The notes beneath the pieces are model-generated. The model had not been told where the DNA came from. It saw only the letters and a list, made by a program, of their open reading frames with translations, and did not search any database. A stretch of 64,000 bases of DNA from a virus, in IMG/VR virus record IMGVR_UViG_3300048837_000984, positions 62,001 through 126,000 of that record; one strand, given 5' to 3'. Position 1 is the stretch's first letter; every line of letters begins with the position of its first letter. Shown here piece by piece: positions 20,158 through 43,777 of the stretch. A program made the position numbers and the translations under genes.

Positions 20158-20781
20158 TTACTTGGGAAGGGAAACCAGAACGTGGCCAGTTTCGGCCAGG
20201 CCTTTCAGCGCTAACCGCCGCTCACCGACAAACAGCATAAAACCGAACCTGTCTTCAAACCTTTGGTACAGCGGGGCTGACTCGATAGTTGTCCCGTCAG
20301 CCAGGCGCAGGGTTAGGACTGAAAGGATTGGGACCTTCTTCGGGTCCAGGAGATCTTCCCGGGTCAAGACTGTCGGGGACTTGCGGAGTCTGGTAATGGT
20401 GGTAGTTGCGTGTACGTAGCTTGTCGACCGATATGCCGAAAGAGCTGCGTGACCACCTTTGAAAACGATATACGTCGATTCGACACGAAGGACTTCGCCC
20501 TCGTAAGAGTCGCAAAAGTCTGTGCCATGGTGTTCGATCCGGACGCGTACAAAGTCACCCGGTTGGACCTGGTCCAGAGTGATAACTTCCCCCTCTTCCG
20601 CAGGCTTGCCTGTCAGGGCGCGATTTAGGTCAGCCATTGCTTCTTCCTTCGTCGCGTACCTGCGGTAGAATTCGCATAGCTGACCGCCCTCGAGCCGGTC
20701 AAAGACATCTTCCGGGATCGCCTCAGGTCGTGTGGGCGAGCCTCCCCGAACCCAGCAGTTGAAAAATGGATCGTAATGCAC
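20158..20781 (-). CDS. Hypothetical protein with SH3-like domain
   Basis: 207 aa, GTG start after GAGGAG. Residues 1-60 are a short N-terminal domain (YATKEEAMADLNRAL); the rest starts LDQVQPGDFVRVRIEHHG and includes TTTITRLRKSPTVLTREDLL. The order GDxVxV, hydrophobic strand, TxxxLxR, ExxLxxxxL is shared with 25019 and 25853, making a three-member paralog set. Function unknown. Confidence 0.68.
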   Translation of the reverse strand: MHYDPFFNCWVRGGSPTRPEAIPEDVFDRLEGGQLCEFYRRYATKEEAMADLNRALTGKPAEEGEVITLDQVQPGDFVRVRIEHHGTDFCDSYEGEVLRVESTYIVFKGGHAALSAYRSTSYVHATTTITRLRKSPTVLTREDLLDPKKVPILSVLTLRLADGTTIESAPLYQRFEDRFGFMLFVGERRLALKGLAETGHVLVSLPK

Positions 20782-20792
20782 AAGCGCTCCTC

Positions 20793-20807
20793 ACTTAATT
20801 TTTTAGT
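20793..20807. promoter_or_regulatory. AT-rich 15-base palindrome variant
   Basis: ACTTAATTTTTTAGT on the + strand, 12 bases before the GTG at 20781 and overlapping the stop of the upstream gene. Confidence 0.5.
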
Positions 20808-21222
20808 CGTCAGCGTACGGATCCGCGTTGATCGAGTAGGTATCGTACTTCACGATATTGGTAACTTCCAGATAGAACGTACAGCCGCAGTGCTCGCAGT
20901 CCGTTACGTAGCGGCGGTCGCTGACAAAGCCATAAACGTTCGGGTCAAACTCGTGCCCGCAGAACGGGCATATCGCCTCAGAACTGTCAAAGGAAGCCTG
21001 GTACTTCAGAACCAGGTGCTGCGCCGGAGTCTCGGAAAAGCACTTCCTGCAGAGCCCAGTACGGCACTGGGTTTGGTGGTCCGCCACGTTGACGTAGTGG
21101 ACGGCCTTATAGCACTTCTTGCAGCGAGGAAAGTCATCGGACGCTTTCGAGAACAGAACCCAGTACATTATCGCGATGGCTGCAGCCAGAGGGACCCACA
21201 GCGCAATTTCAGACATCGTCAA
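20803..21222 (-). CDS. Membrane-anchored zinc-ribbon protein
   Basis: 139 aa, TTG start 7 bases after AGGAGG (an ATG two codons later is poorly placed). One N-terminal transmembrane helix (residues 6-24), then CKKC, CRKC, CPFCGHEFD and CEHCGCTF: two zinc-ribbon-like sites in the cytoplasm or lumen. Function unknown. Confidence 0.7.
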   Translation of the reverse strand: MTMSEIALWVPLAAAIAIMYWVLFSKASDDFPRCKKCYKAVHYVNVADHQTQCRTGLCRKCFSETPAQHLVLKYQASFDSSEAICPFCGHEFDPNVYGFVSDRRYVTDCEHCGCTFYLEVTNIVKYDTYSINADPYADD

Positions 21223-21844
21223 CTTTAGTCCTCCTAGCCAGGGTTAGCAGTGCCCGCGATAGAGCAGCATCGGCATCCTGCCTGGTGTAGTAATCCTTTG
21301 AATAGACAGCCGCTTCGAAGAAGCCGTCTAGCTCGCGCCAGACTCGCATAGGAAGGTCATTTGGATCCACCGGTTCCTCACCGATCTGTGAGTTGTAGAC
21401 ACACCGCCACCAGGTGAAGATGGTGGCCAAGGCGTCATCGGTTGTATTGCTGCCGTCCTCAGTGTAAGCTTCGGCAGATCTGTCTGTCACCACAACCCGC
21501 TTGACTGGCTGCTTGTGCGCCATCCATGGCAAATACTCCAGTAAAACATCCAACGGCGCGTGGACCTCCTCAATAAAGCCTTTCCTGAACACCAGCCGCT
21601 CAGGTACAAACCTCCGACTTGGCGCGCATTCCGCGACGATCGCCAGGACTTCCCCGTACTGGGGGACAGTAAGCCTTGTTTTTAGCAATTGCCCAGAGCC
21701 ATCTGTCTCGATTGTGTCCTCGAGACGGATGATCTCGGCACGGGCTGTAAAGCCATTCTCTTCCAGCCAATCAGAGTAAACCAGGCGATGAACGTCATCG
21801 TCAGGCTCTTCGAGGATCTTTTCCAGAAAACCTTCATGGTTCAT
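21209..21844 (-). CDS. TIGR02996 (repeat-companion) domain protein
   Basis: 211 aa, ATG. The first 45 residues are the canonical domain: FLEKILEEPDDDVHRLVYSDWLEENG followed by RAEIIRLE. In Gemmata-type planctomycetes this domain heads hundreds of proteins, often before leucine-rich repeats; here it is followed by RLVFRKGFIEEV and VKRVVVTDRSAE, a degenerate LRR-like stretch. The best single marker of a planctomycete host in the window. Confidence 0.85.
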   Translation of the reverse strand: MNHEGFLEKILEEPDDDVHRLVYSDWLEENGFTARAEIIRLEDTIETDGSGQLLKTRLTVPQYGEVLAIVAECAPSRRFVPERLVFRKGFIEEVHAPLDVLLEYLPWMAHKQPVKRVVVTDRSAEAYTEDGSNTTDDALATIFTWWRCVYNSQIGEEPVDPNDLPMRVWRELDGFFEAAVYSKDYYTRQDADAALSRALLTLARRTKVDDV

Positions 21845-21847
21845 TCT

Positions 21848-22510
21848 TTACACCAGTCCGGCTGCCAGGTCGACAGCCCAGCAGCCTTGATAATGAGGTC
21901 CCGCTGACCGTAAATGGGCGAGAGCCGGGGGGAGTTGGCGTCCCGTACGGTTACACGCTTTGCACGGCTCGACTGTGTACCCGTGAGATGTCTGTGTCCT
22001 GCTTGTCAAAGCTCCTTTGCACTTCTTGCACTCAACCTCTGACAGTCCGGCCTCTTCTAGCGCATCCGACATGATCAACAACCGCTCTCGGTCCAGAAAC
22101 CCGTATTTATTGCGATTGTCGAAAGCTGCCTGAGCCAGACTGACCACTTGCCCAGTCAGAGCCTCTGGAGGCAAAACAACCGGATCCGATGGGTCGATGA
22201 AAATGTCTCGAAGGATCTGGGGTTGATTTTCTCTTTGTGGCTCTGTGTTGTGGATACGAATCGCCTCGTACAGCGTTTCGAGCACATCGTGGAGCTGCGT
22301 GTAACTGAATAAGTGCCCCTTCCAGTGCTTGCCGCGACCGTGTACGTTCCAGAAGTTGAACTCGATCGCGTTTATCGCCAGCCGCAGCTTCCGGTCGCTG
22401 GGCCGCTGCACCTTCAACGCTTCGTGTCCCGCCGGGTACGCATTACGTCGCGTCAGCAGGTCCAGCATCGCCACCGGGTCTGTGCCGACGCTCCATTCCG
22501 CTTCTGTCAC
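21848..22510 (-). CDS. Gemmata-type family protein with zinc finger
   Basis: 220 aa, GTG overlapping the previous stop (GTGA) after GAGGTGAGG. MTEAEWSVGTDPVAMLDLL, SDRKLRL, LRDIFIDPSDPVVLP, LAQAAFDNR, LLIMSDALEEAGL, CKKC/CKACNRTG, AHLRSAGPHYQGCWAVDL. Confidence 0.82.
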   Translation of the reverse strand: MTEAEWSVGTDPVAMLDLLTRRNAYPAGHEALKVQRPSDRKLRLAINAIEFNFWNVHGRGKHWKGHLFSYTQLHDVLETLYEAIRIHNTEPQRENQPQILRDIFIDPSDPVVLPPEALTGQVVSLAQAAFDNRNKYGFLDRERLLIMSDALEEAGLSEVECKKCKGALTSRTQTSHGYTVEPCKACNRTGRQLPPALAHLRSAGPHYQGCWAVDLAAGLV

Positions 22511-22722
22511 CCCCTCACCTCCTGCCTCCCTGTCCCACGGCATTCCCAGCATGGCACAAGCTCAACTGTTGGGCACCCGTTCCACCAGTCAGCCTTGCCT
22601 CCTGTCTCGTCACAGCCAAAGATAAAGCACCGGCAGACGTACCGCACCTTTCGCCCCAGGCAGTGGGGGCAGTCCAGGCGACTTCGCTCCGGTGCCGGGC
22701 TGTTGGCTTTTGGCTTGTCCAC
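22507..22722 (-). CDS. Free-standing DnaJ-like zinc-finger protein
   Basis: 71 aa, GTG after GGAGGTGAGCC. CPHCLGRKVRYVCRC, then GC and CWECRGTG: a compact four-pair zinc module with almost nothing else, ending QEVRG like the protein at 23662. Resembles the fingers inserted in adjacent family members. Confidence 0.7.
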   Translation of the reverse strand: MDKPKANSPAPERSRLDCPHCLGRKVRYVCRCFIFGCDETGGKADWWNGCPTVELVPCWECRGTGRQEVRG

Positions 22723-22725
22723 GGC

Positions 22726-23496
22726 TCACCTCCTCTCCGTCAGTAGGTCGATTGCCCAGCATCCCCGGTAGTGCGGCCCCTCGGATCGCAGGTGGGCGAG
22801 CAGGGGGTGCGGCAACTGCAGCCGTCCGCCACACTCATCGCACAATTTCGTCCGCGACGCAGGCACCTTCCTGTTTCCGCCAAGGCTCCCAGTGCCACCG
22901 CACCGGCAGCATGTCTCGTCGGTCGGCAACCCCGCATCAATCAGCGCGTCACTCAGCACCAGCAGCCTGTCCGGGTCTAGGGTACCGTCCTCGCAGCGTT
23001 CCTGGTACGCGGCTTCGGCGAGGGAGAGGACGAGGGGCGTGAGGACAGGGGAGGGTCCGTGCCCGGTGCCGTGGCAGGTGTCGCAGTTACGCGAGTCGGG
23101 CGGAACATCCCTTTGCTGGTAATACCGGAGGATGACCTTGCCGAAGCCCTTGCACTTCCCGCACACCTCCCCCACCGGCAGCGTGACCGGGCGGAAGGGG
23201 TTGCCGAGCACCTCACGGACAGCATCAGCGACCGTGCCCGCGTCTGTGTCCAGGGCGAAGTGGTAGTCGTCGTAATCGCCCTTGCTGCCTTCCCACTGGA
23301 CGTTGGCCGTCAGCCTGCGTCCGCCAGGAGAACTGGTCCACCGAATCCCGCGAATATTGGTAAAGTCCTCGTTGCGCAGCATTGCGTACCCGACCAGCAG
23401 CAATTTCCGTTCGCTGGGCTTGTACTGAGGTGTGTGAACGACGAAAGACATCATCGCCACCGGGTCCGTACTCGCCAGCCATTCCTGCTCTGTCAC
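22726..23496 (-). CDS. Gemmata-type family protein with two zinc fingers
   Basis: 256 aa, GTG after GGAGGTGAGATT. MTEQEWLASTDPVAMMSFV, SERKLLLVGYAM, VLGNPFRPVTLP, CGKCKGFG/CDTCHGTG, LAEAAYQERCEDGTLDPDRL, a second finger CCRCGGTG/CDECGG, AHLRSEGPHYRGCWAIDLL. About 100 and 70 bases are essentially identical to parts of the gene at 19155. Confidence 0.84.
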   Translation of the reverse strand: MTEQEWLASTDPVAMMSFVVHTPQYKPSERKLLLVGYAMLRNEDFTNIRGIRWTSSPGGRRLTANVQWEGSKGDYDDYHFALDTDAGTVADAVREVLGNPFRPVTLPVGEVCGKCKGFGKVILRYYQQRDVPPDSRNCDTCHGTGHGPSPVLTPLVLSLAEAAYQERCEDGTLDPDRLLVLSDALIDAGLPTDETCCRCGGTGSLGGNRKVPASRTKLCDECGGRLQLPHPLLAHLRSEGPHYRGCWAIDLLTERR

Positions 23497-23500
23497 AATC

Positions 23501-23665
23501 TCACCTCCTGTCCCCTGGTGTAGTCCAGTCGTGCAGCCACTCACCGAAAGAATCCACAGAGCGAATGGTTCCGAACAAGCTGATAAAGCGGCACACCTGC
23601 ATTACCGGGTGGGCAATCAGGTTGTGTATTGCCCACCAAAATTCTCGATGCAGAAATTCCGTCAC
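23501..23665 (-). CDS. Conserved small phage-type protein (WWAxHNxxAHP motif)
   Basis: 54 aa, GTG overlapping the previous stop (GTGA). FWWAIHNLIAHPVMQVC and FGEWLHDWTTP match a small protein I know from many phages and actinobacterial/planctomycete genomes; function unknown. Confidence 0.7.
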   Translation of the reverse strand: MTEFLHREFWWAIHNLIAHPVMQVCRFISLFGTIRSVDSFGEWLHDWTTPGDRR

Positions 23666-24114
23666 CCCCTCACCTCCTGCCTTTGTCCCTGTCCCCTCGC
23701 CCACCGGATCGCCCGGCGGGATGCGTCGTCGATGGCGTCCTGGCGGGTGTCGTAGGGATACCAGTCCCGTTTGCGAAACCACGCTGCCGGTAAGGCGTAT
23801 GGGAGTTCTAAGTGCTGGTAAGCAAACCAGGAATACTTGCCCGCCAATTCCTCTCGAATCCAGTCCGCATGTTCGTCGTCATACTCCGGCTCCCGATCCG
23901 ACAACTCCACCCGCTCCAGTGCCACCCTCCGCACCAGCCCCGGACCCACCTCCAGCCAGTCAGCCAGCGTCCCCCGCCAGACGCCGGTGATGCCCACCTC
24001 GGTGAGCCTCACGCCGTTGTCCTCGCACCAGCCCAGCCAGGCGAACCGGGCTACGGGGTCGCCCTGGTAGTGGGCGTCGAGCAGGGCGGTTTCCAGGTCG
24101 GTGGTTGGTGTCAT
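23662..24114 (-). CDS. TIGR02996-type protein, GC-rich copy
   Basis: 150 aa, ATG. LLDAHYQGDPVARFAWLGWCEDNGVRL, VWRGTLADWLEVGPGLVRRVALERVELSDREP. Much GC-richer than paralogs at 16212 and 29238, consistent with recent arrival from the host. Ends QRQEVRG. Confidence 0.82.
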   Translation of the reverse strand: MTPTTDLETALLDAHYQGDPVARFAWLGWCEDNGVRLTEVGITGVWRGTLADWLEVGPGLVRRVALERVELSDREPEYDDEHADWIREELAGKYSWFAYQHLELPYALPAAWFRKRDWYPYDTRQDAIDDASRRAIRWARGQGQRQEVRG

Positions 24115-24140
24115 CCTCTCCCCTCCCTCCCCACCGTGCC

Positions 24141-24163
24141 GGTTAGCCGGTCGCGGCTAAACC
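24141..24163. terminator. Hairpin between genes
   Basis: GGTTAGCCG, loop GTCG, CGGCTAAACC with one bulged base. Separates 24195 from 23662; no clear T-run on the coding strand. Confidence 0.4.
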
Positions 24164-24194
24164 TCCCGCGACACCCGGCGCGGCGGGGGTGGTT

Positions 24195-25022
24195 TCACTG
24201 GCCTTGTTTCTTTGCCGCCTCAAGTATCACGTTTAGGTCTGCGGCACTGATCTCCTGAGACGACGGACGCAGGGCCAGAGGCAGCCCCTCCCCGTACAAC
24301 TCTGCCCACCTCGCCAACGCCGCATCGACCATCTCGCCGAGCGAGGCGGGACTGTCCTCGGTGCCGATGCCGACGTGGTTCGGCTTGTCGCTGTCAATCG
24401 GCTTGTTCCACACGACCACCACTTCCCGCTTGTTCGTCGCCGGGTGGCAGATGTCGATCAACTCCAGCATCTCGGCGTCCTGGCAGCCTTCGACGCTGAC
24501 GACTGCCGTGCGGAATCCTTCGCGCTGCTGCACCCACGCCCGCAGCCGGGACAGGGCGGATTCCTCGGACTGCTCGCGGAGTCGGGCGTTCTCGGCACGC
24601 AGGCGGTCCAGTTCCGCCTTCATCCCCTCGAACGCGCCCCATGCGTACCCGCACAGCCACACGTCATGCGGGCAGTGTTCCGGCTCTGCCGATTCCGGCA
24701 AGCCGTCCTTCGCGGCCTGATAGCCCGCGTTGAATTCATCGATCTCCTCAGCGTACTCACGACGAGACTGGGCAAGTTCTGCCTCTACCGCCTGGCACCG
24801 CCTGATCCAGTACGGCAGGGCTTCGCGGGACTCACAGATAAAGCAGGCGTTGTAAACCATCTGCTCGACGGAATGCTCTTTGCAATCCATGTTGGCGATG
24901 ATTGGTCCGTAGCCCCGTTCGTCTTCCGGCTCTCGGACTGAGTACCCGCTGACGGATTCCCACGGTCCCGGCGTTGCCGCATTGCACAACTCCAGGTCCT
25001 TCTCGGTGTCTCGCTCGCTCAT
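24195..25022 (-). CDS. Hypothetical protein with RMF-like motif and coiled coil
   Basis: 275 aa, ATG. N-terminal 75 residues (CNAATPGPWE...ESREALPYWIRRCQ) match a domain common in phage proteins. Residues about 97-130 read FNAGYQAAKDG, CPH, WLCGYAWGAFEGM, the RMF-like pattern also at 16654. A coiled coil follows (ELDRLRAENARLREQ). The C-terminus shares GEMVDAALARW with the protein at 26771. GC-rich. Confidence 0.65.
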   Translation of the reverse strand: MSERDTEKDLELCNAATPGPWESVSGYSVREPEDERGYGPIIANMDCKEHSVEQMVYNACFICESREALPYWIRRCQAVEAELAQSRREYAEEIDEFNAGYQAAKDGLPESAEPEHCPHDVWLCGYAWGAFEGMKAELDRLRAENARLREQSEESALSRLRAWVQQREGFRTAVVSVEGCQDAEMLELIDICHPATNKREVVVVWNKPIDSDKPNHVGIGTEDSPASLGEMVDAALARWAELYGEGLPLALRPSSQEISAADLNVILEAAKKQGQ

Positions 25023-25477
25023 CCCTGTGTCTCCTCCGTGTAAATCGCCTTGATGTTGTCGAGGGCGACTTCGGCAGTGTCGAATGGGCTCGCACCAAGG
25101 AAAACATTCACGCCGTTAGCAGAGCGTGTCACAAAGTGGAACGTGCCGTGAATAACGCCACCGTTGTTCTGGACCAGTTCCACCTTCGTCCCGATCGCCG
25201 TCTTCAGGATCAGGTCTTCCTTGCTGACCTCCACTCGCCTGGGTGGCCGGTGGAGGAGGAGAATCGTGACTGAACTGCGACCAGTAGTGACCGCATCGAT
25301 GGGTCTGTTGAGATTTGCGCCGGTGTCGAAAATAATTGAGTTGAACCAGAGGCAGTCTACCACGCCCTCGTCAATCTCCTTGTAGCCGCTGGGCCAGACC
25401 CGGGTAATCCGGACCGTGTCACCCTTGAGGACCTCATTCGGTGCAATAGGCTTGCCGCCGTTACATGCGTCAGTCAT
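25019..25477 (-). CDS. SH3-like hypothetical protein
   Basis: 152 aa. ATG at 25477 after AAGGATGAAGAC. VLKGDTVRITRVWPSGYKEI, SVTILLLHRPPRRVEVSKEDLILKTAIGTKVEL and FDTAEVALDNIKAIY parallel the gene at 25853 (DKIQVTNTYFDG, KIILLHRAKKRREITKEELI). A paralog pair in tandem, with a third copy at 20158. Confidence 0.7.
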   Translation of the reverse strand: MTDACNGGKPIAPNEVLKGDTVRITRVWPSGYKEIDEGVVDCLWFNSIIFDTGANLNRPIDAVTTGRSSVTILLLHRPPRRVEVSKEDLILKTAIGTKVELVQNNGGVIHGTFHFVTRSANGVNVFLGASPFDTAEVALDNIKAIYTEETQG

Positions 25478-25856
25478 TGTCTTCATCCTTAGAAGGGGTT
25501 TCGAACAGGAAAACAGTGTCCTGGTTAGGGGCTGAAAGCATCCACTCAGCCAACTCGCTATCCGCGACAAAGAGACGTAAGACCACCTCGTCGGTGAGAC
25601 GCCATTCCAGAGCCACCTCGGCAGAGGGTTCCCAGAAATAGATGTCGTCAGGGTACCGCATCTTCTGAAGTCGCGGGAGGAGAGTCCGAACCAGGTCCTT
25701 CTGGAACTCGGTAAAGTCACCCTGCGAATCCAGGTCGGCGATCGTCGTCAAGATGGTCCCCCACCTCACGTCCTGCTCGCCGACCTGGAGTTGCTCGATC
25801 GTCTTATGTATTCGCCCGGGACGCATAAAGCGTAGGCCCTCAAAAAGTACTATCAC
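25470..25856 (-). CDS. Hypothetical protein
   Basis: 128 aa from the GTG that overlaps the previous stop (GTGA); an ATG ten codons in has a GAGGG site 10 bases away and is an alternative start. Helical N-terminal half, beta-rich C-terminal half, acidic tail. No family recognised. Confidence 0.62.
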   Translation of the reverse strand: MIVLFEGLRFMRPGRIHKTIEQLQVGEQDVRWGTILTTIADLDSQGDFTEFQKDLVRTLLPRLQKMRYPDDIYFWEPSAEVALEWRLTDEVVLRLFVADSELAEWMLSAPNQDTVFLFETPSKDEDND

Positions 25857-26263
25857 TCTTCAATCCAGAGCTTCTCGACATCGTCCAGGGAACACTCCGT
25901 TAATGATGCAAAATCGAACATCCAGGACTTGCTGCTGCGCCAGACAATGCCGAAGATCCCGGTAATGTCGACCGTTTTGTCCTTGAACCGAACGACCAGG
26001 GTAGCCCCCGACTGGACGTTGTAGATCAGCTCCTCTTTCGTGATCTCGCGTCGCTTCTTTGCCCGGTGGAGGAGGATAATCTTCGTACCAGAATCAACCG
26101 GGACCCATTGCTTCTGGTAGCTGTACTTGAGCCAGACGCCCCCGGGCCTGACGCCGACCAAAGTACCGGTCTCGGTCCTTGTGTACTCCCCGTCGAAGTA
26201 TGTGTTGGTGACCTGGATCTTGTCGTTGACCTGAAGCTCTCCGACCTTGACTTCCTTACTCAT
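25853..26263 (-). CDS. SH3-like hypothetical protein
   Basis: 136 aa, ATG six bases after AAGGAG. Begins KVGELQVNDKIQVTNTYFDGEYTR; see the paralogs at 25019 and 20158 for the shared order of motifs. Likely a small beta-barrel; function unknown. Confidence 0.7.
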   Translation of the reverse strand: MSKEVKVGELQVNDKIQVTNTYFDGEYTRTETGTLVGVRPGGVWLKYSYQKQWVPVDSGTKIILLHRAKKRREITKEELIYNVQSGATLVVRFKDKTVDITGIFGIVWRSSKSWMFDFASLTECSLDDVEKLWIEE

Positions 26264-26283
26264 TGCCGTCTCCTTGTGGTGGT

Positions 26284-26490
26284 TTACGAGCTGAAACGCA
26301 ACGCCACAGTCTGCTTCCGGAGTCGCCGATGTCTTACGGCTTCCTCTCCATTAAACTTGAACCGGCACCGCATCCCGTACACCGCCGCATACGACAGAAA
26401 CTGACCGGGAGCCTCTCGCTGAAGACGCTGGTTTCGCTTCAGCGCCTTTCTTGCCTTGAGGAGTTCCTCATCACTCTTCTTTTTAGCCAT
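26284..26490 (-). CDS. Small basic protein
   Basis: 68 aa, ATG overlapping the previous stop by one base (TGATG). Lys/Arg-rich helices at both ends; probably nucleic-acid or ribosome associated, but no family recognised. Confidence 0.6.
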   Translation of the reverse strand: MAKKKSDEELLKARKALKRNQRLQREAPGQFLSYAAVYGMRCRFKFNGEEAVRHRRLRKQTVALRFSS

Positions 26491-26744
26491 CAGACAGCCT
26501 CGTGACCCTGGTCGTTGTTCGCGCGGATTGCGTCGGCGATCTCTTTCTGGTTGTTATCCCAGTACTCACTGGCAGCTAAGAGATCATCGAACGTGAGAAA
26601 CGGAAAATAGTCTGGACCCATGACGTCTGTGAAATACACGTCATGGGTCCACAGCTCTGCCAGTTGCCACACGGCAACCCGGGTATCCCGGATACAGGCT
26701 TCCCCGCCCATCACTCCAGGAGTCTTCTTGATTAGACTACTCAT
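26490..26744 (-). CDS. DUF433 domain protein (VapB45-like antitoxin family)
   Basis: 84 aa. ATG at 26744 after AAGGG. PGVMGGEACIRDTRVAVWQLAELW, then FPFLTFDDLLAASEYWDNNQKEI, is the DUF433 signature (GGxPxIxGTRIxV). These proteins usually pair with a PIN/DUF5615 toxin, which I do not see next to it; it could be an orphan antitoxin countering a host toxin. Confidence 0.75.
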   Translation of the reverse strand: MSSLIKKTPGVMGGEACIRDTRVAVWQLAELWTHDVYFTDVMGPDYFPFLTFDDLLAASEYWDNNQKEIADAIRANNDQGHEAV

Positions 26745-26770
26745 CCTAACCCTTCCACTTCTTTTAGCTG

Positions 26771-27142
26771 TCAAGCGGTACCCGGATACCGTTGCTCCCA
26801 CTCCCGCAACGCCGCGTCGACCAGCTGACCGAACGTCGGCGGGTTCTCCGGGGAACCCACAACCGTGATGTTCTCGTCTTCAGCGTCCAGGCCCACAAAG
26901 ATGCTCAAGACCCGGTTATTGGCATCCGTGCCGATGATGTGGAGGAGCTGGTCGTCCAGGCTGTAGTAGCGACCGCTCTGGGCACTCTTCCACTCCCGCA
27001 GGCGAGCGTGGGCTGTAACCTCGAGTCGGTCTTGCAGATGTTGCTTGAGCCAGTAAGACAGAGCCTCAGCCATGAAGTCGAAGGCGTCGTTCTTCTCTTC
27101 GAACGTACCCAGCTTGTCCAGGTCTTCCTGTGCATTACGCAT
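26771..27142 (-). CDS. Hypothetical protein
   Basis: 123 aa, ATG overlapping the previous stop (TAATG). C-terminal PPTFGQLVDAALREWEQRYPG matches the end of the protein at 24195. N-terminal helical region FDFMAEALSYWLKQHL. Function unknown. Confidence 0.65.
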   Translation of the reverse strand: MRNAQEDLDKLGTFEEKNDAFDFMAEALSYWLKQHLQDRLEVTAHARLREWKSAQSGRYYSLDDQLLHIIGTDANNRVLSIFVGLDAEDENITVVGSPENPPTFGQLVDAALREWEQRYPGTA

Positions 27143-27702
27143 TACTCAGTCTCTTTAGGTTTGATAGGTGGCTGAAGCCTACATGGCTCCAGCTTTTCAC
27201 CTAGAAGAAATCGCTTTGTACGGTCGACCGCCCAGTGCCAACAGGCGTGAGCCAGCGCGTCCTGGGGGCTTGGGATCGAGGTTTCCGTGCCCGAGCTGGC
27301 ACGGATTTGCGCTGAATCGTCACCGGCGTAAAAGGTTTCCAACCGCCAGTTTGGCAGGAACTGCAGTACCTCGAGCGGCACTTCGGAATCGTCGTCTTCT
27401 ATGTCGTCGGCAGTGAAACTCCACCAGTAGCCGCGATAGGTGAGACGATCTTCAATGTACAGAGAGTCTTCATCCACAACACCTAGGACAACCGCATCCA
27501 TATGGTTGGCTAGCCAGTCCTCTATCGGGAACTCTAGCCGGTTGTGGGTCATTGTCAGCCAGGTCTGTAGCTGGTTGATCTGGTCTACCTGGTCAGGATA
27601 GTTCTCAACCAGGTAGTCATGGAAAACCGCAATGGTGGCCTGGGTGTCTTTCCGTGCTAGCAGAGACTCGACGAACGAGACCACCAGTGGGTCATCTTTC
27701 AT
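27142..27702 (-). CDS. Hypothetical protein, paralog of 12996 and 27966
   Basis: 186 aa, ATG. DPLVVSFVESLLARKDTQATIAVFHDYLVENYP opens it; VPLEVLQFLPNWRLETF and DALAHACWHWAVDRTKRFLLG close the shared part, followed by a Pro/Lys tail. TIGR02996-related by pattern. Confidence 0.75.
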   Translation of the reverse strand: MKDDPLVVSFVESLLARKDTQATIAVFHDYLVENYPDQVDQINQLQTWLTMTHNRLEFPIEDWLANHMDAVVLGVVDEDSLYIEDRLTYRGYWWSFTADDIEDDDSEVPLEVLQFLPNWRLETFYAGDDSAQIRASSGTETSIPSPQDALAHACWHWAVDRTKRFLLGEKLEPCRLQPPIKPKETE

Positions 27703-27941
27703 ACGTAGTCCTCTGGTTTGGCCAACCTGGCTGAGACAGTCCGGCCGTTACGGTTGTCGATAACCAGCAACGCGATTCGCAGGATTTTTGCGCCCGTGAG
27801 TGTCGAATTTACCCACCGGGCGACACGTCGGATGGCGACAGTCATCCCGTCAGGACAGCCAAACACGTTCAAGGACAGACTTTTCTTCATTTCCTCGTGC
27901 AGGTAAAGAATCTCAGCCCGCAGGTGGGTATTACATTTCAT
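27699..27941 (-). CDS. Hypothetical protein
   Basis: 80 aa, ATG after AGAAAGGAA. RAEILYLHEEMKKSLSL and VTVAIRRVARWV-like helices. No family recognised; stop overlaps the next start. Confidence 0.6.
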   Translation of the reverse strand: MKCNTHLRAEILYLHEEMKKSLSLNVFGCPDGMTVAIRRVARWVNSTLTGAKILRIALLVIDNRNGRTVSARLAKPEDYV

Positions 27942-27965
27942 ACTGGGTTCCTTTCTGCAGAGTGA

Positions 27966-28487
27966 TCAGTCTTCGATCTCGAAAAACTCCCTGAAACTGT
28001 GAACCGCCCAATGCCAGCACGCCTTGTTCAGGTCTTTCAGTGCCAACGCAAGCGAGTACGGATACGGTGGCTCAGCCTTAAAGTAAGATCCGCTGAAATT
28101 GGAAAGGTCTCGCAGCTGCCAACCCACGAGGAAATTCAGGATCTTCAGGGGAACGTGCGACCGGTCGTCTTCGAGTGACGGGTCTAGAAAGCTCCACCAG
28201 CCGGCACCGTAAGGAATCCGGTCCGTAATAACTAGCGTTTTCTCTGACAGGCCCGCATAAAGCACCACAGCTTCCTTGTGGAAGTTCAGCCACTCCTCCA
28301 AGGTAAAGAGCTTCTGTTCGTCTCGCTTGCTCAACAGATAGGGCACGCTCTCCAGGAACAGTGCCTGGCTTACAGCCTTTGGGTAGTTCTCCAGCAAGTA
28401 GTCGCGAAAGATGGCTGCAGTTGTCAGGGTCTCTTTGTGGGCGATAAGGTCGTCTACGAAAGCCTTAACCACGGGGTCATGACTCAA
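27966..28487 (-). CDS. Hypothetical protein, paralog of 12996 and 27142
   Basis: 173 aa. TTG at 28487 chosen: it gives MSHDPVVKAFVDDLIAHKET, aligning with both paralogs, follows GGGAG, and sits just past the neighbour's coding end; an ATG nine codons upstream would break the alignment. Ends ACWHWAVHSFREFFEIED. Confidence 0.74.
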   Translation of the reverse strand: MSHDPVVKAFVDDLIAHKETLTTAAIFRDYLLENYPKAVSQALFLESVPYLLSKRDEQKLFTLEEWLNFHKEAVVLYAGLSEKTLVITDRIPYGAGWWSFLDPSLEDDRSHVPLKILNFLVGWQLRDLSNFSGSYFKAEPPYPYSLALALKDLNKACWHWAVHSFREFFEIED

Positions 28488-28924
28488 GCTTCTTCTCCCA
28501 TTCTTCCAGGGCATCGCCCACCAAATGAGTCAAAGCCTCCACAGGGTTGTCTGAAGCGCCCAGGGAAGGACCCCGGACGATAACATCGTTCTGCTTGTCG
28601 TAGAGCTCCAGAAGTGCGTAACCGGTAGTGGTAGCGTCTGACAGGCAAAAGCCTCCCGCGGCATTGTCATGCTTCCAGGCGGCTAATCGCAGGACCGGGC
28701 TTTGACCCGCTGCGTCAGCCAGATCCGCATTCAGCTTTACCAGGCGCCAGTTGTCCTTGCGGAGCTCGTCGATTCGGGCTCGAAGCTCTTCGTTCAGTTC
28801 GGTTAGACAAAGGTAGCGGTTCTCAACCCAGGAGTCGACCCAGCGCAGAATCCCACCAGCCAGCCAGCCCGATGGCCAGGGCCATAGCTGCCGTGGCCAG
28901 CAACATGTAAACGATATCCATCAT
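28477..28924 (-). pseudogene. Membrane-anchored protein split by a frameshift at a 4-base repeat
   Basis: Starting at ATG 28924, the frame encodes a transmembrane helix (MLLATAAMALAIGLAG) then stops early. The frame that continues to TGA at 28477 (ENRYLCLTELNEELRARIDELRK ... DALEEWEKKLES) has no start codon. The two join perfectly, as GLAGGILRWV, if one GGCT unit is removed from the tetranucleotide repeat at 28856-28869. Either phase-variable OFF, decayed, or a sequence error. Confidence 0.65.
28856..28869. repeat. Tetranucleotide repeat (CCAG)3 at a frameshift
   Basis: CCAGCCAGCCAGCC; a change of one unit would restore the reading frame of the surrounding gene. Confidence 0.7.
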
Positions 28925-29235
28925 TCAACCGTCTCCTTGCGAATGTACTTGCGAACGATCTCATCGAACGTTAGCTCTCGCTCGTTGAGTCCGGCCCGGT
29001 TGCCAGAAATGACATCCAGGGCCGTCCAGCCGTCCACTGTCGAAGATCCGAACTTTTCTACCCGCTCAAGGCGCTCGTCGAGCTTTGCGAAGCCTTCCTC
29101 GCCGTACTTGGACTTGTAGTACTCCTTGAACTCCTCAAGCGACATGCCGTAGGTAACCGGAGCGTCCACGATTGTGGACCACTCCAGGTAGTAGGGTACG
29201 CCGTCATCAACAATCTTAACAATGTATCTGGGCAT
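28921..29235 (-). CDS. Hypothetical protein
   Basis: 104 aa, ATG. YIVKIVDDGVPYYLEWSTIVDAPVTYGMSLEEFKEYYKSKYG and LDERLERVEKFGS suggest a compact alpha/beta fold. No family recognised. Stop overlaps the next start. Confidence 0.65.
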   Translation of the reverse strand: MPRYIVKIVDDGVPYYLEWSTIVDAPVTYGMSLEEFKEYYKSKYGEEGFAKLDERLERVEKFGSSTVDGWTALDVISGNRAGLNERELTFDEIVRKYIRKETVE

Positions 29236-29237
29236 GA

Positions 29238-29669
29238 TTACTCCTTCGGTCTCTTATGGGGTCGGGCCGTAAAATAGGCCCACAGTATAGCCGTCCGACT
29301 TAGCCAGGCGTTTGCCGCTCTTACGCTAGAAAATTCTTTGCACGCGGAATTGAGAAGATACGGCGGAAGGTGGATTGTTGTCCTACAGCTTGCGTTGTTG
29401 CAACAATACCAACGACAGATTCCGGGCTCGATAAGGTTTACTCTTCTTTCCTGGAAAACCACACGAACTATTGGCATAGCCAGAACCAAGGTCGGACCTT
29501 CGATGTGCCACAATGCCGTGGTCGTTCTGGTAACTATTCTGTCAGCGTTGTCCGGTAAGCTCAGGCCGTGATCCGTGTGGTAGTCCAGCCAGGCTAGCCG
29601 GGCAACTGGGTTGTTGTTGACATAGAAGTCGTGGAGCATCTCGTCCAGGATGTCGCTGTGGTCGGTCAA
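29238..29669 (-). CDS. TIGR02996-type protein
   Basis: 143 aa, TTG start 7 bases after GGAGG. MLHDFYVNNNPVARLAWLDYHTDHG and PTLVLAMPIVRVVFQER; C-terminus AANAWLSRTAILWAYFTAR. Closest paralog is the next gene. Confidence 0.76.
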   Translation of the reverse strand: MTDHSDILDEMLHDFYVNNNPVARLAWLDYHTDHGLSLPDNADRIVTRTTTALWHIEGPTLVLAMPIVRVVFQERRVNLIEPGICRWYCCNNASCRTTIHLPPYLLNSACKEFSSVRAANAWLSRTAILWAYFTARPHKRPKE

Positions 29670-29671
29670 CT

Positions 29672-30124
29672 CTAGGCCTCCAACTTAATTTTTAAGTCCG
29701 GACGTGCTTGGCTGTATGCCCACAGGATAGCCGTCCGACTCAGCCAGGCTTTCGCAGCATCCTTGGTCGGGAAACTCTTACTACTGCCTGCCGGGAGCCA
29801 GGCTGACGAGATATGGTAAGAGCAGGAACAGCTGTTAAAGGATCTACATCCGTGCCAGTAATACCTGGAGTCAGTAGGAGCGTTTTGGAGCGGCTCGAGA
29901 TCCCGAAACGTGACCACCAGCAACGGGCATTTCAGGACCTCGAGACGACCAGAATTCACCCATCTCCTGATGTCGCGAGTGATGCTTCTGCACTGCGCGC
30001 TTTTGTCTAGCTCGATGCCGTGGTCGATGTGGTAGTCCAGCCAGGCCTGCCCAGCCACTGGGTTTTCATTGACATAGAAGTCATAGAGCATGTCATCCAG
30101 CATCTTCTGGTGTTGTAGGTCCAT
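29672..30124 (-). CDS. TIGR02996-type protein, tandem duplicate of 29238
   Basis: 150 aa, ATG. MLYDFYVNENPVAGQAWLDYHIDHG and AAKAWLSRTAILWAYSQAR are nearly the same as in the downstream copy; the centre differs. Its last codons (DLKIKLEA) are encoded by the AT-rich palindrome at 29683. Confidence 0.76.
   Translation of the reverse strand: MDLQHQKMLDDMLYDFYVNENPVAGQAWLDYHIDHGIELDKSAQCRSITRDIRRWVNSGRLEVLKCPLLVVTFRDLEPLQNAPTDSRYYWHGCRSFNSCSCSYHISSAWLPAGSSKSFPTKDAAKAWLSRTAILWAYSQARPDLKIKLEA
29683..29697. promoter_or_regulatory. AT-rich 15-base palindrome
   Basis: ACTTAATTTTTAAGT on the + strand, inside the 3' end of 29672 and 13 bases before the TTG at 29669. Confidence 0.5.
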
Positions 30125-30608
30125 GGGATCCTTTCGATGGAAGTACTTGATTGGTCAGATACTTGCGAGGCGTGGGCGGATACATCTCTAGCAGGTGGAC
30201 AGGTTGATTGCGATAAAACCTGAGGTAGAAAGCAAGAGCGCCAGAGATATCGAGAAAGCTGTAATAAGGTACCTTGCTAGTCAAGTAAAAAGTTGAGTGA
30301 AACGTGGCTCGGGCGTATCTGTAATCCGTGTCGCTCTCAAAAGGTGTCGACCCGGGCCAGTAGTGGAACCAGTAGTCTTTGTGGGGTGGCCAGACCCACC
30401 AAATGCAGCCACTGTTAACACCCGCCAACTGAGGAGTGCGCACAAACGGCCAATGGTTGTGGTCGTACAGGAACCGCCAGGCTGCCGCAGTGATGTTATC
30501 GCCCTGATCTTCGCAGAAGTCTGACGCAACAAGAACCGTTGTCCAGTCAGGCTCACCTTCTTCAGAGGTCGCAGCGACCACAGCCTGGAACATGTCGTCG
30601 GCGGTCAT
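30093..30608 (-). CDS. Hypothetical protein, possibly TIGR02996-related
   Basis: 171 aa, ATG. Opens DDMFQAVVAATSEEGEPDWTTVLVASDFCEDQGD, comparable to the xDWLEExGD turn of TIGR02996, then a Trp/Tyr-rich beta region. Extends 32 bases into the next gene, so its final residues or that gene's start are uncertain. Confidence 0.62.
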   Translation of the reverse strand: MTADDMFQAVVAATSEEGEPDWTTVLVASDFCEDQGDNITAAAWRFLYDHNHWPFVRTPQLAGVNSGCIWWVWPPHKDYWFHYWPGSTPFESDTDYRYARATFHSTFYLTSKVPYYSFLDISGALAFYLRFYRNQPVHLLEMYPPTPRKYLTNQVLPSKGSHGPTTPEDAG

Positions 30609-30647
30609 TGTGCCTCCGCTTGCCTATAGGTGCGATCTCTCACTGAC

Positions 30648-31286
30648 CTACTCCCGTCTGCTGAGAACCCTTTTGCACTCGCCCTGGTAATCGCTTGTTA
30701 AGTCTGTAACCCTTCCAACCCACTCATCCGAACAGGCATGCGCTGGCAAGATTACCCTGTCCCCGACCTTGACCGGAAGGTCTGTGTCGTAGGCATACTT
30801 GCCGTTGACGGTAATGCGTTTCTCGTAAGCTGGCGGGCGACCTACCTTTCTGGCCCAGCGGATAGCCCGCATGCTGGCGCTTTTTTTAGCCCTCTCATGC
30901 GAAGCGTAGACGGCTACGAAGCTCGTCTTCTGGAACGGCCACCACGCCATCGGCAAGAGGTTCTTGCTGTTACCGTAGCGGTAAGCCTCAAACGACTCGG
31001 TCAGGTAAACAGACCAGTGAAACGACAAGAACCCTGGCGTCGGCTGGGGTTCCCTGTCTGTGAACGTTACGGACGGTACCGGCTGCTCGTAAACAATCTG
31101 TGGACCCAGCTTCATCCACTCACTCAGGGTCACCTTGACCCCGTTCACGTAGGTCTTGTCTACAGGCAAGCTGTGCTCCTCTACGTAGTCCAGCCAGACG
31201 CTGCGTGAGAAGTCTATACGAATGCCACGATAGAAATCGTCCAGCATGGCCTGGGTAGTTGCCAGGTGTCTGGGATCTATGACCAT
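30648..31286 (-). CDS. TIGR02996-type protein with C-terminal KOW/SH3-like domain
   Basis: 212 aa, ATG. MLDDFYRGIRIDFSRSVWLDYVEEHSL and GPQIVYEQPVPSVTFTDREP are the family marks; SASMRAIRWARKVG ends the usual length. About 50 further residues (PVKVGDRVILPAH, EWVGRVTDL) look like a fused small beta-barrel. Confidence 0.75.
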   Translation of the reverse strand: MVIDPRHLATTQAMLDDFYRGIRIDFSRSVWLDYVEEHSLPVDKTYVNGVKVTLSEWMKLGPQIVYEQPVPSVTFTDREPQPTPGFLSFHWSVYLTESFEAYRYGNSKNLLPMAWWPFQKTSFVAVYASHERAKKSASMRAIRWARKVGRPPAYEKRITVNGKYAYDTDLPVKVGDRVILPAHACSDEWVGRVTDLTSDYQGECKRVLSRRE

Positions 31287-31301
31287 TCTCCAGGTTCTCC
31301 T

Positions 31302-31316
31302 ACTTAATTTTTAAGT
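31302..31316. promoter_or_regulatory. AT-rich 15-base palindrome
   Basis: ACTTAATTTTTAAGT on the + strand, 15 bases before the ATG at 31286 and directly in front of its AGGAG. Confidence 0.55.
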
Positions 31317-31322
31317 CCGAAC

Positions 31323-31352
31323 GGGGGGTGGGGATAACCCCACCCCCCGCCA
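31323..31352. terminator. GC-rich hairpin
   Basis: GGGGGGTGGGG, loop ATAA, CCCCACCCCCC, just after the stop of 31364; likely terminator of that gene. A short C-run replaces the usual T-run. Confidence 0.6.
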
Positions 31353-32187: not shown

Positions 32188-32200
32188 CTGGCTACTCCTT

Positions 32201-32215
32201 ACTTAATTTTTAAGT
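32201..32215. promoter_or_regulatory. AT-rich 15-base palindrome
   Basis: ACTTAATTTTTAAGT on the + strand, 13 bases before the ATG at 32187, immediately in front of AAGGAG. Confidence 0.55.
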
Positions 32216-32223
32216 GACTTCAA

Positions 32224-32337: not shown

Positions 32338-32556
32338 TCAGGGCAACAAAGGCGAAGCATCCGCAGAACCCTTCCGGATTGCCCCGATTCGGACCAGGGT
32401 CACGAACTCCCATTCCGTAAGCTTCTGACCGTTGCGAACTCGACCCTGGATCACGCGACGGCTACTTCCCGCCGCCGCAACAGCCGTCTCGTAAGTCTCG
32501 TAAGGCCCCCAAACGTATCGCTGGGGACCGGTACTGTCGACTACGTAAAACATCAC
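32338..32556 (-). CDS. Small hypothetical protein
   Basis: 72 aa, GTG overlapping the previous stop (GTGA) with ATG one codon later. FYVVDSTGPQRYVWGPYETYETAVAAAGSS is a small alpha/beta unit; LTEWEFVTLVRIGAIRKG follows. Function unknown. Confidence 0.6.
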   Translation of the reverse strand: MMFYVVDSTGPQRYVWGPYETYETAVAAAGSSRRVIQGRVRNGQKLTEWEFVTLVRIGAIRKGSADASPLLP

Positions 32557-33308
32557 TCTTCCCCGACCACGAGCTTGTTGACCGAGATGCCGAGGGCATT
32601 TGCGATCGGGACCAGCTTGGAAACGTGAAGCGATCGAAGCCCGAACTCAATCCGGCTCAGATCCGACGCACGAAGATCCACAGCCATGGCCAGCTCGAGC
32701 TGGGTCAGCCCAAGCATCTCCCGGTAGAACCGGATGCGATGCCCGATACCCATGCTTTCCGGACTTGCGTTATTGCTTCGCCCAGGCAATGGAGTCGGGT
32801 TCGCTTCCTGGAGAAACGTGTCCAGAGTGACGTTGAACAGCTGCGCGGCCTTGACCGCAGATGCCCAGGTAGGTCCGGATCGACCACATTCCAGCCGACT
32901 GTACTTGACCATGGAAAATCCGAGCTTGGCTGCGGTTTCGACCTGGGTCATCCGGGCCGTTAACCGCAGCTCTCGAAGCTTTGCCGAGAACCGGGCATTG
33001 ACGCCGAGATCCACCTCAGCCAGGCCTTTTCGCTTTCTACGTCGCTTTGCCGAGATCGACGTAACATCTTCCTCTGCCTTGACTTCCTGTTTGACAGACT
33101 CTTCCGTTTCCATGAGCTCTTTGGCTGAGATACCGAGAGCTGCGCACAGCCGTGTCGCCTCGTCAGGGCCGGGAAGGCAATAGCCGTACTCCCAGCGATA
33201 GATGGACCCTTTGCCGACCCGGGCTTCTGTTGCCAGACGGGTCTGACTCAGGCCAGACCGTGACCGGAGTTTTCGAAGTCTCTCTGCGAACTTTAGATGC
33301 GGTCTCAT
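32553..33308 (-). CDS. Regulator with three tandem XRE-type HTH domains
   Basis: 251 aa, ATG overlapping the previous stop (ATGA). HTH 1 at about residues 8-62 (LRKLRSRSGLSQTRLATEARVGKGSIYRWEYG), HTH 2 at 88-145 (LRELRLTARMTQVETAAKLGFSMVKYSRLECG), HTH 3 at 180-245 (IRFYREMLGLTQLELAMAVDLRASDLSRIEFG). All keep the Q-x3-A and R-x-E marks of Cro/C1-type HTHs. Three in one chain is unusual; it should bind an extended or repeated operator. Confidence 0.85.
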   Translation of the reverse strand: MRPHLKFAERLRKLRSRSGLSQTRLATEARVGKGSIYRWEYGYCLPGPDEATRLCAALGISAKELMETEESVKQEVKAEEDVTSISAKRRRKRKGLAEVDLGVNARFSAKLRELRLTARMTQVETAAKLGFSMVKYSRLECGRSGPTWASAVKAAQLFNVTLDTFLQEANPTPLPGRSNNASPESMGIGHRIRFYREMLGLTQLELAMAVDLRASDLSRIEFGLRSLHVSKLVPIANALGISVNKLVVGEE

Positions 33309-33760
33309 CCGTCCTCCCGTTCTCCCAGCGCCTTGCCGATCCGACGAGATCGACGAATTTGTTGCTCGGCAAGCCGGTTGGCTTGCAACTGTTGATTCAC
33401 TACGACCTGCTCTCGCAAGGAGAGCTCTTCCACCGGAGTGGACTTCAGATGGTCATCGGCCTTGCGATACTGTCGCAATGCCTTCTTCGTATGACTCTGC
33501 GGAAGATCCCGAATCTGTTCCGAGATCTCGGCGAGCTTGTAAGCTACGCCACGGACACACTTTAGGGAAATACCTCGCTCATCCTTGAGCCGCACTCTCA
33601 ACTTCGTGATGACATGGTTCCAGGAACCATGTCGACGTCGCATGCCCGCCAGTCGTTCGATGACGGTGTAGCGAACCAGCTTGCCGCGGTCAAGCGCCAG
33701 CGTGTACTGCCAGAGCGCCTCCACCGCTTTGGTGATTCTCTCACTCTTTGGGATAAGCAC
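33305..33760 (-). CDS. Basic helical protein, possible DNA-binding
   Basis: 151 aa. GTG at 33760 follows GGAGGG by 5 bases; the frame stays open upstream only because of the structured leader. SERITKAVEALWQYTLAL, then RRHGSWNHVITKLRVRLKDERG and a long Arg/Gln/Lys-rich helix to the end. Pattern resembles a winged-helix followed by a coiled helix; partner of the triple-HTH gene with which it overlaps. Confidence 0.65.
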   Translation of the reverse strand: MLIPKSERITKAVEALWQYTLALDRGKLVRYTVIERLAGMRRRHGSWNHVITKLRVRLKDERGISLKCVRGVAYKLAEISEQIRDLPQSHTKKALRQYRKADDHLKSTPVEELSLREQVVVNQQLQANRLAEQQIRRSRRIGKALGEREDG

Positions 33761-33782
33761 CGATACCCTCCACAAAAGAAAC

Positions 33783-34140
33783 ACCCATCCGCCGTCAGGA
33801 GGATGGGTCCTTGCCTCGCCGCGCCGTACCGGACCGGACCTGGCCTTGCCCAACCCGGCCAAGAAAATACCCACGTGACCAGTTAAGGGAACGTGGGTCC
33901 GGACCATACCTCGCATCGCCAAGCCCCGCCTTGCCTTGCCCTGCCGCGCTACGTTAAACGCAGTCAGTAAAGGCCTTGCGGAAATACCCACTCGACAGTT
34001 TCCTGGAGAGTGGGTCCGAGCCGTACCGAGCCTAGCCGCGCCTTGCCATGCCGAACCCTGCCATACTTAGCCAAGAAAGTGCCTACCTGACGGTTTCCCG
34101 TAAGGTAGGCCCAGACCACACCAAGCCCCACCACACCTAA
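33783..34140 (-). promoter_or_regulatory. Leader of four GNRA-type hairpins separated by 5-base GG-periodic tracts
   Basis: No gene fits in this 390-base gap. Four hairpins (33783-33808, 33869-33898, 33986-34015, 34081-34110) have 8-bp stems; two loops resolve into a smaller stem closed by GAAA. Between them the coding strand has GG every five bases for about ten to twelve units (e.g. CAAGGCGCGGCTAGGCTCGG). It ends 23 bases before the start at 33760. Confidence 0.75.
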
Positions 34141-34150
34141 CCTGGTGCAA

Positions 34151-34819
34151 TCAGCTCAAGGTGACTTCAAACTGGCCCCACGGCCCTGGCGTCGGACAGC
34201 CGGGGCGCCAGTCACCGAGACCCTTCTTACCGGCCTCAGCAAAGATCGCTTCGATTGCCGTTGGAGTCAGGACATCTTCGTTGATGATCTGCAGCTCTCC
34301 AGTCACCGCCCATGCCGTAAACTGTGGCCGCACACGGACATGCTTCGATTTGTTCGAAATCTTTGCCCGCTTAACGAAGAGCTTGAAGCCCATCTTGGCA
34401 ATAGCTGACTGGTGCTTTGGAAACACATCGTCGGGGCTGTCTCCCAGGTCTCGCAGCTTGAGGATCGGCTTGATCGGGATCTGCTTACCGCTGATGGTAA
34501 ACTTCAGGTGCTCGTCCGGGATGAAGAGGCCCGACTGCGACGCTTCCTTGAGCGTCTTACCGCGAGTACCTGGGATCGGGATGGTTGCTCCCGCTTGGCG
34601 CAAGCAGGAAGAGAGATTGTCAGCCGGCATGCTGATGTGCGTGCCGTCGTGGTAGAGACATCCAAGCCAGGACCACGGTGGCGAGCGGTCGTCGCCCTTC
34701 TTGGTAATCTCTTTCGGTGCCGCCGCACGAAATCGCGACAGCTCGTCCGAAAAGTCGATGTTGTCCGCGTGCATCAGCATGTCGGTCCGCCCGCGGCAAA
34801 CGAATCTCACCGTACGCAT
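34151..34819 (-). CDS. Conserved-looking phage hypothetical protein
   Basis: 222 aa, ATG. PWSWLGCLYHDGTHISMPADNLSSCLRQAG and the C-terminal GKKGLGDWRPGCPTPGPWGQFEV form a pattern I associate with a phage protein of unknown function. Central strands ISGKQIPIKPILKLRD and FKLFVKRAKIS are beta-rich. No catalytic residues recognised. Confidence 0.65.
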   Translation of the reverse strand: MRTVRFVCRGRTDMLMHADNIDFSDELSRFRAAAPKEITKKGDDRSPPWSWLGCLYHDGTHISMPADNLSSCLRQAGATIPIPGTRGKTLKEASQSGLFIPDEHLKFTISGKQIPIKPILKLRDLGDSPDDVFPKHQSAIAKMGFKLFVKRAKISNKSKHVRVRPQFTAWAVTGELQIINEDVLTPTAIEAIFAEAGKKGLGDWRPGCPTPGPWGQFEVTLS

Positions 34820-34831
34820 AGTTCGTTCCTT

Positions 34832-35053
34832 TCACTTGATAAACGCTTCCAGACTGACTTTGAGAGCGTTAGCTAGACATACCGCGGTAGCCAGCGAAGG
34901 TCCCCAGAGACCGTCTTCTAGACCGCGGATCGTTTGAAGGGTGATTCCAGATAACTTGTGAAGTTTCTGCTGCGTTAAACCAGCGTCGATCCGAAACTTC
35001 GCCAGCCGTTCACTGAAGAGTGAGTCGATTTCCTTCTTACGCTCGTGCGTCAT
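34832..35053 (-). CDS. XRE-family HTH regulator
   Basis: 73 aa, ATG inside the end of the upstream gene. Single HTH: FRIDAGLTQQKLHKLSGITLQTIRGLEDGLWGPSLATAVCLANALKVSLEAFI. Likely transcriptional regulator; third HTH gene of the region. Confidence 0.82.
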   Translation of the reverse strand: MTHERKKEIDSLFSERLAKFRIDAGLTQQKLHKLSGITLQTIRGLEDGLWGPSLATAVCLANALKVSLEAFIK

Positions 35054-43486: not shown

Positions 43487-43704
43487 CAGAACTCGTCCTC
43501 CTTGTATGCTTCTCTGTCAACGGTCAAGAGCGCCTCTTCAAGGACGCTCGTCGGATAAGATTCAATTGGGGGAAGCCAGCGATTGCCTACCTTGAGCAGG
43601 TAGACGTTGCCGAAACCGTGGACGTGAACGATGACTCTGGTCGCCCTCCAGTTCGACTCCCTGGAGGCGCCACTGAAAAGGACGACATAATTTTTAAGTG
43701 CCAC
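43483..43704 (-). CDS. Small hypothetical protein
   Basis: 73 aa, GTG. NWRATRVIVHVHGFGNVYLLKVGNRWLPP and an acidic helical tail. Its first codons (LKNYV) are encoded by the AT-rich element. A second frame at 43587-43778 (MKKCPEC...) overlaps it and is judged less likely. Confidence 0.6.
   Translation of the reverse strand: MALKNYVVLFSGASRESNWRATRVIVHVHGFGNVYLLKVGNRWLPPIESYPTSVLEEALLTVDREAYKEDEFC
43685..43699. promoter_or_regulatory. AT-rich palindrome variant
   Basis: ACATAATTTTTAAGT on the + strand, same variant as at 16935; here it falls just inside the coding start. Confidence 0.35.
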
Positions 43705-43777
43705 GCCTGATACCTAAGAGGAACAGTAAAGCCTAAGCTCCTGCATAGGATATTGACGCATTCCGGGCACTTTTTCA

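What the first reader, a model, noticed from the sequence alone, without database searches (positions are those of the whole stretch)
33783..34140. Four-module leader: GNRA hairpins separated by strict 5-base periodicity
In a 390-base gap, four hairpins with 8-bp stems alternate with tracts in which GG recurs every five bases for ten or more units. The stem sequences differ while the structure is kept, and inner stems close on GAAA in two. Five-base spacing fits neither codons nor the 10.5-base helix turn exactly (two units do approximate one turn). It sits upstream of the HTH operon. Could be an RNA scaffold, a protein-binding array, or an origin or partition site.
Basis: partly seen in the sequence, partly recalled or inferred. 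Interest (0 to 1): 0.88.

Follow-up and report, generated by a model that had tools for sequence, protein, structure and literature searches.

The report
VIPR guide-RNA array in large phage
The strange five-base-periodic stretch is a set of four guide RNAs of a recently described phage weapon called VIPR, sitting between the gene for its CRISPR-like (RAMP) partner protein and an accessory gene; it very likely lets this large phage switch off genes of rival phages, and it is a new example of a known system rather than a new kind.

Summary
On the minus strand, 34142-33774 holds four modules: a tract of GGYNN pentamers (6, 11, 10 and 10 units; third base C/T in 37 of 37; last two bases close to random), then an 8-bp hairpin that keeps its pairing through changes on both sides, then a U-rich end. 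A profile of the ORF next to our array (34151-34819) and its relatives finds a homologue in 90 of 121 loci (window included), median 24 nt from a tract, same strand in 88. This matches VIPR (Viral Interference Programmable Repeat; PMC13142463, 2026): a RAMP protein (Vipr) loaded with vrRNAs of alternating GGY/NN, whose NN pairs read double-stranded DNA with a 1-nt skip and repress competing phages. Our ORF falls in the family of SUSP1 Vipr (phrog_4652; family profile hits PDB 36pp at 6.5e-42) and its model matches Cas7/Csm3-type RAMPs. The gene after the array (33305-33760) falls in the family of SUSP1 vap1 (phrog_5926). So this is a type II-like VIPR locus in an uncultivated phage record of about 194 kb. 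No target was found. New member of a known kind.

The parts
34151..34819 (-). vipr: RAMP protein of 222 aa, the predicted vrRNA-binding partner; stop codon 9 nt before the first tract
   Evidence: phrog_4652 2.8e-12, same family as SUSP1 Vipr 1.4e-96; family profile hits PDB 36pp 'SUSP1 Vipr protein' 6.5e-42; AlphaFold2 model pLDDT 92.6 matches type VII and III CRISPR RAMP subunits
34113..34142 (-). vrRNA A guide tract, 6 GGYNN units; NN = TA GT GG TT GT CT (short, perhaps a remnant)
34073..34112 (-). vrRNA A tail: 8-bp stem (34110-34103 with 34088-34081), inner stem closed by GAAA, then ACUUUCUU
34018..34072 (-). vrRNA B guide tract, 11 units (one is AGTAT); NN = TA AT AG TC AT AA GC TA TC AC TC
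33978..34017 (-). vrRNA B tail: 8-bp stem (34015-34008 with 33993-33986), inner stem closed by GAAA, then AUUUCC
33901..33950 (-). vrRNA C guide tract, 10 units (first is AGCGC, eighth TGCGA); NN = GC AG AA AA GG TT GA GA AT CC
33861..33900 (-). vrRNA C tail: 8-bp stem (33898-33891 with 33876-33869), then AUUUUCUU
33811..33860 (-). vrRNA D guide tract, 10 units; NN = CG TG AA CA CC CC AC GC GA AA
33774..33810 (-). vrRNA D tail: 8-bp stem (33808-33801 with 33790-33783), then GUUUCUUUU
33305..33760 (-). vap1-like accessory gene, 151 aa, GTG start at 33760 behind GGAGGG (33771-33766); the longer listed ORF 33305-33991 merely reads through tracts C and D
   Evidence: phrog_5926 2.8e-5, the family of SUSP1 vap1 1.1e-75; relatives beside vipr in about two dozen other loci; start site read from the sequence
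32553..33308 (-). possible further accessory: protein with three Cro/C1-type HTH domains, overlapping the vap1-like stop by 4 nt; membership of the system not shown
   Evidence: Pfam HTH_31 and HTH_3, three stretches; only weak relatives in two other VIPR loci

Best explanation
The region is a VIPR locus, read on the minus strand in the order vipr, four vrRNAs, vap1-like gene. Each vrRNA is a tract of 6-11 GGYNN repeats plus a hairpin tail. By analogy with SUSP1, Vipr subunits coat the tract in register with the pentamers; the GGY triplets are held by the protein and the NN dinucleotides pair with double-stranded DNA as NN-x-NN-x (1-nt skip). The complex then blocks transcription of the target, probably a gene of a competing phage, prophage or satellite, helped by the predicted DNA-binding Vap1. 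Shown here: repeat anatomy, tail structure with compensatory changes, Vipr and Vap1 homology, RAMP fold, and co-occurrence in other viruses. Inferred from the published system: transcription, RNP assembly, the skip rule and repression. The target is unknown.
For: GGY in register with near-random NN; hairpin tails with compensatory changes; the motif alone recovers at least 120 viral loci, 90 of 121 with a Vipr homologue, median 24 nt away, 88 of 90 on the same strand; Vipr family by PHROG and by the solved SUSP1 Vipr; RAMP fold; vap1 family by PHROG; the published description fits feature by feature.
Against: Tract A has only 6 units, below the 9-16 reported. The tails differ in sequence between copies, whereas the paper calls the tail invariable. 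No target was found in IMG/VR or, for B and D, in GTDB genomes. The single-sequence match to SUSP1 Vipr is weak (0.0086). No expression data.
Confidence: 0.95

Rival explanations
1. A TRAP-like or other cis-acting protein-binding array: a ring or filament protein binds about 11 triplets spaced by two bases and regulates the downstream HTH operon.
For: About 11 triplets with two-base spacers, the spacing I recall for TRAP targets; position just upstream of the HTH operon.
Against: The neighbouring protein conserved beside such arrays is a RAMP, not a TRAP fold; the triplet is GGY, not GAG or UAG; arrays also lie upstream of vipr or after vap in other loci.
Confidence: 0.02
2. A DNA element (origin, partition or packaging site) or a chain of two-tier G-quadruplexes.
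For: Repeated GG with three-base gaps; intergenic position; repeated modules.
Against: Neither predicts a pyrimidine at position 3 in 37 of 37 units, RNA hairpins with compensatory changes, or constant strand and closeness to a RAMP gene.
Confidence: 0.02
3. A degenerate, no longer working VIPR locus: the parts are inherited but the guides have decayed.
For: Tract A has 6 units; B and C contain imperfect units; no target was found.
Against: vipr and the vap1-like gene are open; B, C and D have 10-11 units; every outer-stem pair is kept. The host is unknown and published targets are narrow satellites and prophages, so a missing match says little.
Confidence: 0.08

Closest known systems
VIPR (type II) of Escherichia phage SUSP1, KT454805; PMC13142463; PDB 36pp
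   Same: Vipr family (phrog_4652) and vap1 family (phrog_5926); four vrRNAs of GGY/NN repeats with structured 3' tails; phage-encoded, same-strand locus
   Different: All four vrRNAs lie between vipr and vap1 (SUSP1: one upstream, three downstream of both genes); tails are plain hairpins that differ between copies, without the SUSP1 pseudoknot shown; one tract has only 6 units; an extra triple-HTH gene overlaps vap1
Class 1 CRISPR-Cas (Cas7/Csm3 RAMP backbone with crRNA)
   Same: RAMP fold of the protein; periodic protein-on-guide arrangement by analogy
   Different: No CRISPR repeats or cas operon; guide read as two-base words separated by GGY instead of a continuous spacer; single small RAMP
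TRAP-binding leader RNAs
   Same: About 11 triplets with two-base spacers (from my own knowledge)
   Different: Triplet is GGY; partner is a RAMP; hairpin tails; several units in a row acting, by analogy, in trans

Membership tests
VIPR | vrRNA of tandem GGY/NN repeats, NN hypervariable, 9-16 units | tested here: met
   37/37 Y at position 3, NN near random; 11, 10, 10 units, but one tract of only 6
VIPR | Structured 3' tail after the repeats | tested here: met
   Four 8-bp hairpins with compensatory changes; the sequence is not invariant as in SUSP1
VIPR | Vipr RAMP protein encoded beside the vrRNAs | tested here: met
   phrog_4652, PDB 36pp by profile, RAMP fold by Foldseek; 9 nt from the first tract
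VIPR | Accessory vap gene; vap1 in type II | tested here: met
   33305-33760 in phrog_5926, as SUSP1 vap1; the assignment to type II by tree was not made
VIPR | Mainly phage-encoded, no CRISPR array or cas operon | tested here: met
   Viral record of 193,694 bp with terminase, baseplate and tail genes
VIPR | Natural targets under the 1-nt skip rule in competing elements | tested here: inconclusive
   No full match in IMG/VR (B, C, D) or GTDB genomes (B, D); partial matches near chance
VIPR | vrRNA expressed, bound by Vipr, represses transcription | not testable with these tools
   Needs small-RNA sequencing, pull-down and a reporter
CRISPR-Cas class 1 | CRISPR repeat-spacer array with several cas genes | tested here: not met
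   No such repeats in the region; neighbouring genes are HTH, M24 peptidase and unknowns
Rfam RNA families | Match to a described RNA family | tested here: not met
   Nothing above threshold in the region

The most novel reading that the evidence does not exclude
A VIPR variant in which the guide RNAs are capped by simple, mutually diverged hairpins, so that Vipr reads the tail by shape rather than sequence, and in which an extra triple-HTH protein joins Vap1 in repression.
Probability: 0.25. Interest if true: 0.5.

Novelty: new member of a known kind. Interest (0 to 1): 0.45.

Why it matters
The window adds a distant type II-like VIPR from an uncultivated phage record of about 194 kb, with four readable guides. 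A motif-only scan independently reproduces the published GGY/NN code and its partner protein in about a hundred viral contigs, and turns up 31 loci with arrays but no recognisable Vipr. The locus makes a clean test of whether Vipr recognises tail shape or tail sequence.

Tried and rejected
Rfam gave nothing. BLASTN against phages gave nothing. A scan with the long ORF 33305-33991 found nothing; its N-terminal part is an artefact of reading through tracts C and D. A TRAP-like array, G-quadruplexes and an origin or partition site were considered and dropped (see rivals). The hairpins as intrinsic terminators: the consensus scan found none on the minus strand, and no sigma-70-type promoter. Target search: full NN-x-NN patterns of B, C and D in IMG/VR gave none; 16-base cores gave 12, 61 and 12 stretches whose flanks match about as chance predicts (C: seven loci in three sequence clusters at 19/20, about three loci expected); full B and D in GTDB genomes gave none; no self-target. 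The host was not determined: the terminase is only about 27% identical to Salmonella phage Arash and Vibrio phages.

Full report
OBSERVATION. The window is bases 62001-126000 of a 193,694-bp IMG/VR viral record. Read on the minus strand, the gap between two ORFs (34150-33761) holds four modules. Each has a pentamer tract, then an 8-bp hairpin, then a U-rich stretch. The longest run of GG at period 5 is 11 units, never reached in 5000 dinucleotide-preserving shuffles (maximum 8); 34 GG pairs lie 5 apart against a shuffle maximum of 22. No other such tract exists in the record. In register, the 37 units read GGYNN: G in 34/37 and 37/37 at positions 1 and 2, C or T at position 3 in 37/37, and near-random bases at positions 4-5. 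The four hairpins pair fully, and 5 of 8 outer pair positions change on both sides. Each folds better than nearly all of its shuffles.

RELATED LOCI. ORFs in these loci were searched with the protein that ends 9 nt before the first tract in our window (34151-34819) and with two ORFs found beside other arrays. The iterated profile finds one homologue in 90 of 121 loci (window included), median 24 nt from the nearest tract, same strand in 88 of 90. So a search that started from the RNA motif alone leads to one protein family.

IDENTITY. The literature search gave one fitting paper: VIPR, Viral Interference Programmable Repeat (PMC13142463, bioRxiv 2026). There, Vipr is a small RAMP protein and vrRNAs are 9-16 YNNGG repeats with hypervariable NN and a structured 3' tail. 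The NN dinucleotides specify double-stranded DNA with a 1-nt skip; the complex silences transcription, and natural targets are competing phages, prophages and satellites. Our protein hits phrog_4652 at 2.8e-12, the family of SUSP1 Vipr (1.4e-96). The family profile hits PDB 36pp, 'SUSP1 Vipr protein', at 6.5e-42; our protein alone hits it at 0.0086, in the region that includes the glycine-rich loop. Its AlphaFold2 model (pLDDT 92.6) best matches RAMP subunits of type VII and type III CRISPR complexes (best E 2.3e-5, TM-scores about 0.35-0.53 normalised by the query, so a distant match). The gene after the array, 33305-33760, hits phrog_5926 (2.8e-5), the family of SUSP1 vap1 (1.1e-75). An iterated profile puts relatives of it next to vipr in about two dozen other loci; that profile absorbed a few ORFs that read through arrays or overlap vipr, so the PHROG match is the cleaner evidence.

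MECHANISM. Shown here: anatomy, structure and family membership of the parts. Inferred from the published system: Vipr subunits on the tract, GGY held by protein, NN pairing with target DNA, repression of a rival element, help from Vap1. The decoded guides are A TA-GT-GG-TT-GT-CT; B TA-AT-AG-TC-AT-AA-GC-TA-TC-AC-TC; C GC-AG-AA-AA-GG-TT-GA-GA-AT-CC; D CG-TG-AA-CA-CC-CC-AC-GC-GA-AA. No full target was found in IMG/VR for B, C or D, nor in GTDB genomes for B and D; C was not searched in genomes. Partial hits are near chance. There is no self-target above chance in the own record.

DIFFERENCES FROM SUSP1. All four vrRNAs lie between vipr and the vap1-like gene, while SUSP1 has them on either side of the gene pair (and the paper). 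The tails are plain hairpins that have diverged between copies while keeping their pairs. Tract A is short (6 units). A gene with three Cro/C1-type HTH domains overlaps the vap1-like stop codon by 4 nt. These are variations; none contradicts membership. The type was not settled by a tree; 'type II-like' rests on the vap1 family.

VERDICT. Real, and explained: a new, distant member of VIPR. Interest is moderate: the system was published only in 2026 and this instance offers readable guides and a test of tail recognition, but it is not a new kind.

Noticed in passing
L018, L026, L031, L050, L067, L085, L103 and 24 further loci: 31 viral loci carry GGYNN arrays but no ORF that the Vipr profile recognises, even at relaxed thresholds. 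Some are short fragments; others have 10-15 kb of sequence. They could be orphan arrays, satellites or hold a diverged RAMP.
   Followed up: partly
L027, L030, L072 and others: Some viral contigs carry very large or nearly continuous GGYNN arrays: single tracts of up to 175 units when linkers stay in register, and up to 23 tracts in one locus.
   Followed up: no
window 12989-13015, 16935-16955, 20787-20807, 29678-29704, 31297-31323, 32195-32221, 43685-43705: A palindrome close to ACTTAATTTTTAAGT recurs in gaps between genes across the window; it looks like an operator or promoter element of this phage.
   Followed up: no
L006:11576-17221 (-), outside the window: A single 1881-aa ORF matches DNA polymerase (about 106-781), a nicotinamide phosphoribosyltransferase of staphylococcal phages (770-1112), a helicase (about 1215-1671) and a further DNA-polymerase family (1672-1812): an unusual fusion, or a frame of an assembly artefact.
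   Followed up: no
window 34832-35053 and 32553-33308 (-): A 73-aa Cro/C1-like HTH protein ends 12 nt before vipr and resembles the triple-HTH protein downstream (5e-11), so the VIPR locus is flanked by related HTH genes, perhaps its own regulators.
   Followed up: no
window 16212-31286 (-): A paralogous family of small proteins (at least six copies: 16212-16679, 17761-18204, 23662-24114, 29238-29669, 29672-30124, 30648-31286) of unknown function.
   Followed up: no
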